From Mycobacterium sp. Root265 (GTDB lineage Bacteria > Actinomycetota > Actinomycetes > Mycobacteriales > Mycobacteriaceae): a stretch of 64,000 bases of DNA. Positions 30,988-32,179 of this stretch are shown piece after piece. Below the pieces are notes generated by a model. It was given only the letters and a program-made list of their open reading frames with translations, was not told where the DNA came from and did not search any database. A program made the translations under genes and the position numbers. Every line of letters begins with the position of its first letter. The stretch's first letter is position 1. The stretch covers positions 585,644 through 649,643 of the forward strand of contig NZ_LMJA01000030.1 in assembly GCF_001428895.1 (NCBI RefSeq), given 5' to 3'.

Positions 30988-31587
30988 ATGACCGAGAAAC
31001 CACCCCTGTTTGGCCGGCAGCTACGCGAGGATCTGTACCGCAAGCGCGTCCTCGTGCTCGACGGCCCCCTCGACGACGACAACGGCGCCGTGCTGATGGC
31101 GCAACTGCTGACGCTGGCCTCCGATTCCGATGACGATGTCGCCCTGTGGATCCACTCCCCCGGCGGTTCGGTGCCGGCCATGCTCGCGATTCGCGATGTG
31201 ATGCGGCTGATTCCCGCCGATGTGTCCACGCTGGCGCTCGGACTGGCCTGCAGCGCAGGACAATTCCTGCTGTCGTCCGGCACGCCGGGCAAGCGGTTCG
31301 CACTTCCGCACGCACGCATCCTGATGCACCAGGGGTCGGCGGGTATCGCCGGTTCCGCGGTCGAGGTGGAGGTGCAGGCCGACGATCTGCGGCACACCCG
31401 CGACACCGTGCTTGCCATCATCGCCGCGGATACCGGCCAGGACGTCGAGCGCATCTTCACCGACTCCCTGCACGATCGCTGGTTCACCTCCGAGCAGGCA
31501 CTCAGCTACGGGTTCATCGACCACATCGTCGGCGACTTCACGCAGATTGCACCGAACCGTAAGCAGCACTTCGGGATCGGAGTCTGA
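30988..31587 (+). CDS. ClpP-like serine peptidase subunit (catalytic triad intact)
   Basis: A 199-residue ClpP paralog, not the housekeeping clpP1/clpP2, which in mycobacteria lie elsewhere beside clpX. The triad reads Ser89 in ACSAGQF, His114 in LMHQG and Asp163 in LHDRWF, so the enzyme should be active. The N-terminal strand and the SPGGS oxyanion motif at 57-61 are normal, and the long handle helix follows. ClpP subunits form stacked seven-fold rings that receive unfolded protein from ClpX or ClpC. It is followed after one base by a second clpP with a lost serine, then by a convergent ClgR/PopR-like regulator, the arrangement of the Streptomyces clpP3-clpP4-popR group. I would not give it a firm number. 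Confidence 0.88.
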   Translation: MTEKPPLFGRQLREDLYRKRVLVLDGPLDDDNGAVLMAQLLTLASDSDDDVALWIHSPGGSVPAMLAIRDVMRLIPADVSTLALGLACSAGQFLLSSGTPGKRFALPHARILMHQGSAGIAGSAVEVEVQADDLRHTRDTVLAIIAADTGQDVERIFTDSLHDRWFTSEQALSYGFIDHIVGDFTQIAPNRKQHFGIGV

Positions 31588-31588
31588 C

Positions 31589-32179
31589 GTGAGTACGTAC
31601 ACCATCCCGAACGTCATCGCCCGCACCCCCAGCGGCGAGCGCATCATGGACGTCTACTCGCACCTGCTCACCGAGCGCATCGTCTACCTGGGCACCGCCA
31701 TCGATTCCGGCGTCGCCAATGCCCTCATCGCCCAACTGCTGCATCTGGAGGCCGACAACCCGGAACAGGAGATCGGGCTCTACATCAACTCCGAGGGCGG
31801 CGATCTGTCGGCGATGCTTGCCGTCTACGACACCATGCGCTTCGTCAAGGCCCCGGTGGCGACCACGTGCGTCGGGCAGGCCGTGGCAACCGGGGCCGTG
31901 CTGCTGGCCGCCGGTGAGCCGGGGCGGCGTTCGGTGCTGCCGCACACCCGGGTGGTGCTGCACCAGCCGGCCGCCCAGGGGCGCGGCACCATCCCGGATC
32001 TGATCCTGCAGGCCGACGAGGTGGTCCGGATGCGCAGTCAGCTGGAATCGATCCTGTCCCGGCACACCGGCCGCAGCGTCGAACAGCTCCGGCACGACAC
32101 CGACCGCGACCGGGTGTTCGACGCCGAGGGCGCGGTGACCTACGGCCTGGCGGACCGGGTGCTCGATCAGCGCGTCTAG
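31589..32179 (+). CDS. ClpP-like subunit lacking the catalytic serine (pseudoprotease)
   Basis: A 196-residue ClpP-fold protein starting at GTG 31589, one base after the previous stop. Aligning GQAVATGAVLLAAG with the canonical GQAASMGA block places Ala100 where the nucleophilic serine should be. His125 (VVLHQP) and Asp174 (DRDRVF) remain, as does the INSEGGD oxyanion loop at 67-72. The rest of the fold, including the handle helix, looks sound, so this is a maintained inactive subunit rather than a decayed gene. By analogy with ClpR of plastids and cyanobacteria it may form mixed rings with the upstream active subunit. The stop overlaps that of the convergent regulator as CTAG. Confidence 0.88.
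   Translation: MSTYTIPNVIARTPSGERIMDVYSHLLTERIVYLGTAIDSGVANALIAQLLHLEADNPEQEIGLYINSEGGDLSAMLAVYDTMRFVKAPVATTCVGQAVATGAVLLAAGEPGRRSVLPHTRVVLHQPAAQGRGTIPDLILQADEVVRMRSQLESILSRHTGRSVEQLRHDTDRDRVFDAEGAVTYGLADRVLDQRV

What the first reader, a model, noticed from the sequence alone, without database searches (positions are those of the whole stretch)
30988..32179. Accessory ClpP pair with one active and one serine-less subunit
The first subunit keeps Ser89/His114/Asp163. The second has Ala100 in place of the nucleophile in an otherwise sound ClpP sequence, and is translated one base after the first. Mycobacteria are known for ClpP1P2, so an extra pair with a built-in inactive ring member, similar in idea to ClpP/ClpR of plastids and cyanobacteria, is unusual and may form a distinct protease.
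Basis: partly seen in the sequence, partly recalled or inferred. Interest (0 to 1): 0.75.

Follow-up and report, generated by a model that had tools for sequence, protein, structure and literature searches.

The report
Backup ClpP pair, one half catalytically dead
A mycobacterium carries a spare protein-shredding machine built from two sister subunits, one of which looks able only to cut and the other only to hold the feeding motor, a split that recurs in many soil bacteria and shows how such machines can divide labour.

Summary
Genes A (30988-31587) and B (31589-32179) encode sound ClpP proteins; A keeps Ser89/His114/Asp163, B has Ala100 with His125/Asp174. The genome also has an ordinary tandem ClpP1P2. 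This is no recent change: B is Ala in 76 of 80 named actinobacterial loci and in 12 of 14 mycobacterial genomes (of 198 searched) that hold such a pair. A convergent ClgR-like regulator ending LLAA and an upstream CTGCY-N3-RGCAG box match the PopR-controlled backup operon clpP3clpP4 of Streptomyces. A groups with ClpP1, B with ClpP2. In a dereplicated set A keeps the triad in 129 of 129 but both ATPase-docking aromatics in 1; B keeps the triad in 34 of 130 but both aromatics in 111. The lesion varies by lineage (Ser, His or Asp); trees suggest about five to ten separate losses. dN/dS is lower for B than for A. Best reading: a PopR-controlled backup Clp core in which a B ring docks the ATPase and an A ring cuts; assembly is inferred. 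That some actinobacteria have a triad-less ClpP is already in print (d'Andrea 2022); I did not find the reciprocal degeneration or its PopR link described.

The parts
30988..31587 (+). clpP gene A (ClpP1/ClpP3-like), expected catalytic subunit; S89/H114/D163 intact; Trp and Leu at the two docking positions that are Tyr and aromatic in B
31589..32179 (+). clpP gene B (ClpP2/ClpP4-like), GTG start, nucleophile replaced by A100 with H125/D174 kept; docking aromatics Tyr and Phe kept (residues 65 and 85)
32176..32544 (-). PopR-like (ClgR-related) HTH regulator, convergent, C-terminus ...TLLAA; relatives suggest that the true start is the internal ATG near 32496 (inference)
30931..30944 (+). PopR-type box TCTGCT-CAC-AGCAG upstream of gene A
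30816..30860 (+). inverted repeat after the upstream acyl-CoA dehydrogenase gene, terminator-like by a consensus scan that finds 1 against 0.8 in shuffles; may separate the clp pair from that gene

Best explanation
The two genes form a conditional backup Clp protease core of the Streptomyces ClpP3-ClpP4 kind. Subunit A is expected to form the catalytic ring. Subunit B is expected to form a catalytically dead ring whose job is to complete the barrel and to carry the docking pockets for ClpX/ClpC1. The division of labour is reciprocal: A has lost the docking aromatics and keeps the triad; B has lost catalysis and keeps docking. The PopR-like activator would bind the box upstream of A. It carries an LAA C-terminus, which in Streptomyces marks PopR for destruction by ClpP1P2, so the pair would be switched on only when the housekeeping ClpP1P2 fails. 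Shown here by sequence: gene order, lesion, its conservation, the reciprocal pattern, box, regulator and degron-like end. Inferred: A7B7 stacking, one-sided ATPase docking, PopR binding and PopR turnover in this organism.
For: Triad A-H-D in B at 76 of 80 named loci and S-H-D in A at 78 of 78 that hold A. Class survey of 394 genomes: 106 loci beyond the window's own, B intact in 35 and degenerate in 71, at Ser, His or Asp; A intact in 105 of 105. Housekeeping control: ClpP2 intact 50 of 50, ClpP1 50 of 50. Dereplicated set: A 129/129 triad but 1/129 with both docking aromatics; B 34/130 triad but 111/130 with both aromatics, Tyr 130/130. A shows no loss; B needs about 5 to 10. A groups with ClpP1 and B with ClpP2. 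Median dN/dS 0.10 for B, 0.14 for A. Regulator on the opposite strand downstream in 76 of 80 named loci (65 within 300 bases), 74 of 76 ending AA. Box in 58/78 named, 13/17 Streptomyces-type and 12/13 other Mycobacterium loci against at most 2 in any of 20 shuffles; the 4 Kribbella loci lack both regulator and box. Published experiments: in S. hawaiiensis ClpP1P2, ClpP2 S131A keeps full activity and a ClpP1 docking mutant is harmless (section read); an Mtb strain with both kinds of change grew like controls (passage).
Against: No biochemistry on this pair. 34 of 130 B proteins keep the full triad, so a dead B is common but not required. 33 of 129 A proteins keep the docking Tyr, and 19 of 130 B have His at the second docking place. 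B's lesion and A's loss of the Tyr do not clearly go together locus by locus. The box is missing by exact match in 20 of 78 named loci, 4 of them Kribbella. The Kribbella serine sits inside the Ala clade. In Streptomyces cattleya each of four ClpP proteins, among them the adjacent ClpP4 and ClpP5, was reported to shorten an antitoxin's half-life in E. coli when expressed singly with ClpX (passages); whether these are an A-B pair was not checked. Mixed-ring assembly as in cyanobacterial ClpP3/R, or mixing with ClpP1/ClpP2, is not excluded.
Confidence: 0.75

Rival explanations
1. B is a ClpR-like member that mixes within the same heptameric rings as A, tuning activity and substrate choice, instead of forming its own ring.
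For: Synechococcus ClpP3/ClpR rings hold 3 P and 4 R subunits (passage). B's predicted fold and docking pocket are sound.
Against: The nearest relatives of A and B, ClpP1 and ClpP2, are reported to form separate rings that stack (passages).
Confidence: 0.15
2. B, or A plus B, acts mainly by joining the housekeeping subunits (for example B with ClpP1) and modifying or damping ClpP1P2, as ClpP-ADEP does in S. hawaiiensis.
For: ClpP-ADEP forms a working core with ClpP2 and disrupts ADEP-activated ClpP1 complexes (passages). This genome has all four ClpP proteins.
Against: A lies beside B in all loci where the stretch held allowed it to be seen, except two Streptomyces plasmid loci (L150, L151) that I do not count as members, and A's triad does not decay; this points to A as B's working partner. 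Control of the PopR kind would express the pair when ClpP1P2 is failing.
Confidence: 0.1
3. B is a decaying pseudo-subunit with no function.
For: Loss of the nucleophile.
Against: Median dN/dS about 0.10, lower than A (78 pairs of 13 mycobacterial loci). B is closer to its relatives than A in 127 of 129 loci. Docking Tyr kept in 130 of 130.
Confidence: 0.02

Closest known systems
Streptomyces PopR-controlled clpP3-clpP4 backup operon
   Same: Two clpP genes in tandem; ClgR-related regulator on the opposite strand downstream with an AA end; box of the TCTGCC-N3-GGCAGA type. A named Streptomyces locus (S. fungicidicus, L147) has this layout and the box.
   Different: The lesion differs: the Streptomyces-type B (L147 and the unnamed loci of the same kind) keeps Ser but has Gly for the catalytic His; here Ser is Ala. 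The box here is TCTGCT-CAC-AGCAG with, by eye, only a weak second half-site.
Housekeeping ClpP1P2 of mycobacteria and Streptomyces
   Same: A groups with ClpP1 and B with ClpP2. One ring cuts and the other docks, by published mutants.
   Different: There both subunits keep their triads (50 of 50 each), and ClpP1 keeps both pocket aromatics in 23 of 25. Here the asymmetry is fixed in the sequence.
ClpR of cyanobacteria and plastids
   Same: A catalytically inactive ClpP relative that works beside active subunits (passages).
   Different: B groups with actinobacterial ClpP2, so a separate origin is likely, though no ClpR sequence was in my tree. B keeps His and Asp; ClpR is described as lacking the triad.

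Membership tests
ClpP (PF00574) | Full-length ClpP domain | tested here: met
   A 179 bits, B 221 bits, cut-off 20.2; model of B matches ClpP structures, TM about 0.84
ClpP as an active peptidase | Ser-His-Asp triad | tested here: not met
   Met in A, not met in B, which is A-H-D
PopR-ClpP3P4 backup operon | Tandem clpP pair beside a separate ClpP1P2 | tested here: met
PopR-ClpP3P4 backup operon | ClgR-related regulator beside the pair, distinct from ClgR | tested here: met
   74 bits to the ClgR model, below its cut-off of 170; the match over the cut-off, 174 bits, lies elsewhere
PopR-ClpP3P4 backup operon | PopR operator TCTGCC-N3-GGCGAATCTGCC-N3-GGCAGA | tested here: inconclusive
   One inverted pair, TCTGCT-N3-AGCAG, is present; the second half-site is weak by eye; across loci the box is far above shuffles
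PopR-ClpP3P4 backup operon | Regulator with a two-alanine C-terminus degraded by ClpP1P2 | tested here: inconclusive
   The end ...LLAA is present; degradation cannot be tested here
PopR-ClpP3P4 backup operon | Expressed only when ClpP1P2 is lost | not testable with these tools
   needs expression data
ClpR | Descent from the ClpR lineage | tested here: inconclusive
   B scores 164 bits on NF009204 against a cut-off of 263, and higher on general ClpP models; that this model stands for ClpR is recalled. No ClpR sequence was in the tree; B groups with actinobacterial ClpP2

The most novel reading that the evidence does not exclude
Actinobacterial backup Clp cores are naturally one-sided machines. 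After duplication of the clpP1P2 operon, the docking ring lost its catalysis several times by different lesions, and the catalytic ring lost its docking pocket. One advantage could be a backup core that offers only seven active serines and a docking ring that serine-directed ClpP inhibitors (such as beta-lactones) cannot acylate.
Probability: 0.3. Interest if true: 0.8.

Novelty: new variant of a known kind. Interest (0 to 1): 0.6.

Why it matters
The function of inactive Clp subunits (ClpR) is called poorly understood in a paper whose section I read. Here evolution repeats the experiment: in paired subunits one keeps only catalysis and the other only docking, in a system whose housekeeping twin shows the same split by engineered mutation. 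That makes the idea of separate docking and cutting rings directly testable in non-pathogenic actinomycetes. It may also bear on how bacteria ride out ClpP inhibitors.

Tried and rejected
Recent single change: rejected, since B is Ala in 76 of 80 named loci; Ala codons in 114 rows, repeats of the window included, are GCG 86, GCC 20, GCT 5, GCA 3. Pseudogene: rejected by dN/dS. Mycobacterial invention: rejected; named members fall in Mycobacteriaceae, Pseudonocardiaceae, Nocardiaceae, Thermomonosporaceae, Streptosporangiaceae, Catenulisporaceae, Microbacteriaceae and Kribbellaceae, and mycobacterial copies fall in at least two places of the B tree (the window's group beside Pseudonocardiaceae, L017 among Nocardia), with L018 and L019 a third, Ser-type kind, so repeated gain is likely. 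A genome-wide regulon for the box: no support, 13 matches against 33 for the reversed control. A shortened N-terminus in A as a special feature: dropped, because my extraction trimmed ClpP1 in the same way. A locus-by-locus link of B's lesion with loss of A's docking Tyr: none clear (B lost and A lost 72; B intact and A lost 24; B lost and A kept 23; both kept 11). Rows dropped before the final count: housekeeping loci L001, L002, L020-L035; duplicates of the window L003, L004; L005, a weak partial match not examined; L149-L151, not clear members (one search puts one B row among ClpP2; L150 and L151 have no A beside them). The phylum survey (13 of 296 genomes) was not followed further. The statement that I found no description in print rests on nine searches of an open-licence library. 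Of the papers of Viala and colleagues I saw only reference lists and what others say of them. Supplements were not available.

Full report
What is there. Gene A (30988-31587, 199 aa) and gene B (31589-32179, GTG start, 196 aa) lie on the + strand with one base between them. Both are ClpP domains. A carries S89, H114 and D163; B carries A100, H125 and D174. Alignment to solved ClpP chains places B's alanine on the nucleophile column. AlphaFold models from 24 and 19 rows reach mean pLDDT 77 for B and 82 for A; B's model matches ClpP structures, an M. tuberculosis ClpP1P2 chain first, TM about 0.84. The models are of single chains and say nothing about assembly.

Surroundings. The genome holds four strong ClpP matches: this pair and a tandem pair at G000:C27:173552-174711, taken as the housekeeping ClpP1P2; a fifth, partial match (21.6 bits, cut-off 20.2) was not examined. 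Downstream and convergent, at 32176-32544 on the - strand, is an HTH protein that scores 74 bits on the ClgR model, below its cut-off of 170, while a match of 174 bits lies elsewhere. It ends in LLAA. Upstream of A, at 30931-30944, lies TCTGCT-CAC-AGCAG. In Streptomyces lividans, PopR, a ClgR paralogue, activates clpP3clpP4 at TCTGCC-N3-GGCGAATCTGCC-N3-GGCAGA, and ClpP1P2 degrades PopR; a review names two C-terminal alanines as the likely signal (passages of PMC9775585, and PMC9765437).

Spread and conservation. One scan of named genomes gave the 80 best loci of 507 candidates; this choice favours relatives of an Ala-type query. B is A-H-D in 76 and S-H-D in 4, all Kribbella; A is S-H-D in all 78 loci that hold it. 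In the genus, 14 of 198 genomes carry a B-like gene, read from the match list; 12 are Ala-type and 2 Ser-type. In the class, 107 of 394 genomes match at E <= 1e-68, a cut that again favours the query's kind. For the 106 other than the window's own, B is S-H-D in 35, A-H-D in 21, S-G-D in 15, G-H-D in 7, E-H-N in 6, E-H-H in 5, S-H-N in 4, W-H-T in 3, S-H-S in 2, G-H-E in 2 and one each of six other states; A is S-H-D in 105 of 105. The sets overlap a little: 6 of the 14 genus B proteins and 1 of the class ones are identical to a named one. One S-G-D locus is named, Streptomyces fungicidicus (L147), so Streptomyces-type ClpP4 seems to have lost the catalytic histidine. Control: housekeeping ClpP2 and ClpP1 are intact in 50 of 50 each; 30 were the search's best loci, mostly mycobacterial, and 20 came from genomes that hold a B gene.

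Independent losses. On a quick tree of 158 rows, with the triad columns left out, intact versus lost needs at least 6 changes (5 losses and 1 regain, or 10 losses if nothing returns) and the triad types at least 20. A careful tree of 63 rows, chosen to sample each state, needs 7 changes; weighting a regain twice gives 6 losses and 1 regain, no regain gives 8 losses, and at equal weights 2 losses and 5 regains cost the same. Lesions fall on all three residues: His to Gly (Streptomyces type), His to Asp, Ser to Gly/Trp/Phe/Ala, loss of Asp with or without Ser to Glu, and the large Ala clade; such different lesions speak against many regains. A shows none. Kribbella serine lies within the Ala clade (support 86/83 with a pair of family f29, inside a 99/95 clade), so serine may have come back there; Kribbella also lacks the regulator and the box.

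Reciprocal decay. The E. coli pocket aromatics Y76 and F96 lie 35 and 15 residues before the nucleophile. In the dereplicated set (B rows under 93% identical; L149-L151 dropped) both aromatics are kept in 111 of 130 B, 23 of 25 ClpP1 and 25 of 25 ClpP2, but in 1 of 129 A; the Tyr is kept in 130 of 130 B and 33 of 129 A. The triad is kept in 129 of 129 A and 34 of 130 B. In the window A has Trp and Leu and B has Tyr and Phe at these places; the window's own ClpP1 has Tyr and Leu, so the loss in A goes one step beyond ClpP1. Locus by locus the two decays are not clearly linked. A has also mostly lost the acid-Arg pair just before the catalytic Asp (kept in 20 of 129, against 117 of 130 in B and 25 of 25 in ClpP1); I recall this pair as a ring-ring contact and leave its loss unexplained.

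Selection. Among 13 mycobacterial loci (78 pairs) median dN/dS is 0.10 for B and 0.14 for A. Tree distance from the window is larger for A than for B in 127 of 129 loci. So the dead subunit is the better kept one.

Regulation. The exact box CTGCY-N3-RGCAG lies within about 350 bases upstream of A in 58 of 78 named, 13 of 17 Streptomyces-type, 12 of 13 other Mycobacterium and 67 of 93 other loci; 20 shuffles give at most 2 in any set. The regulator lies on the opposite strand downstream in 76 of 80 named loci (65 of them within 300 bases) and ends AA in 74 of 76; in the class, 98 of 106 (88 within 300 bases) and 94 of 98. The tally takes the best match in each stretch, so the farther ones may be other HTH genes. 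Genome-wide the box is not enriched, which fits a dedicated switch.

Origin. In a FastTree of 316 rows with three outgroup ClpPs, A falls with ClpP1 and B with ClpP2, each at support 99, as expected if the clpP1P2 operon was copied as a unit. A and ClpP1 are not cleanly separated there (12 ClpP1 rows fall within the A clade, support 66), and one B row falls among ClpP2.

Mechanism. Experiments in Streptomyces show that ClpP1P2 works fully with a ClpP2 nucleophile mutant and with a ClpP1 docking mutant (section read). In M. tuberculosis a strain with both kinds of change grew like controls, and ClpP2 is called a scaffold for chaperone binding (passages and one section read). The present pair looks like that double mutant fixed by evolution. 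I therefore read it as a backup core with a cutting A ring and a docking B ring, switched on through the PopR-like protein when ClpP1P2 fails. Assembly, docking and induction are inferred. A result that sits less well is from S. cattleya, where single ClpP proteins with ClpX each shortened an antitoxin's half-life in E. coli (passages).

Novelty. d'Andrea 2022 (PMC9067928) already states that Nocardia asteroides and Streptomyces coelicolor each have one clpP allele lacking residues needed for activity, and likens this to ClpR. So an inactive actinobacterial ClpP is known in outline. In nine searches of an open library I did not find a description of the link with PopR, the variety of lesions, or the reciprocal loss of docking in the partner.

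Noticed in passing
window 30862-30923 and about 56854-56915: A perfect 17-base inverted repeat (arms 28 bases apart) is a dispersed element: 27 matches to one arm with up to 2 mismatches in the own genome, most in pairs, against 4 for the reversed control. One copy sits between the upstream gene's terminator-like repeat and the PopR-type box. Family unknown.
   Followed up: partly
window 28968-30803: The gene upstream of the pair is an acyl-CoA dehydrogenase. A close relative lies in the 4 kb flank of the pair in 7 of 12 named mycobacterial loci examined and not in the other 5, so the pair sits in at least two genomic settings.
   Followed up: partly
L078, L103, L105, L106: Kribbella pairs have a serine in B although the two that were in the tree branch inside the Ala clade, and all four lack both the PopR-like gene and the box.
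   Followed up: partly
gene A, residues 161-162 (window 31468-31473): The acid-Arg pair just before the catalytic Asp, present in all 25 ClpP1 rows, is Leu-His here and absent in 109 of 129 A proteins.
   Followed up: no
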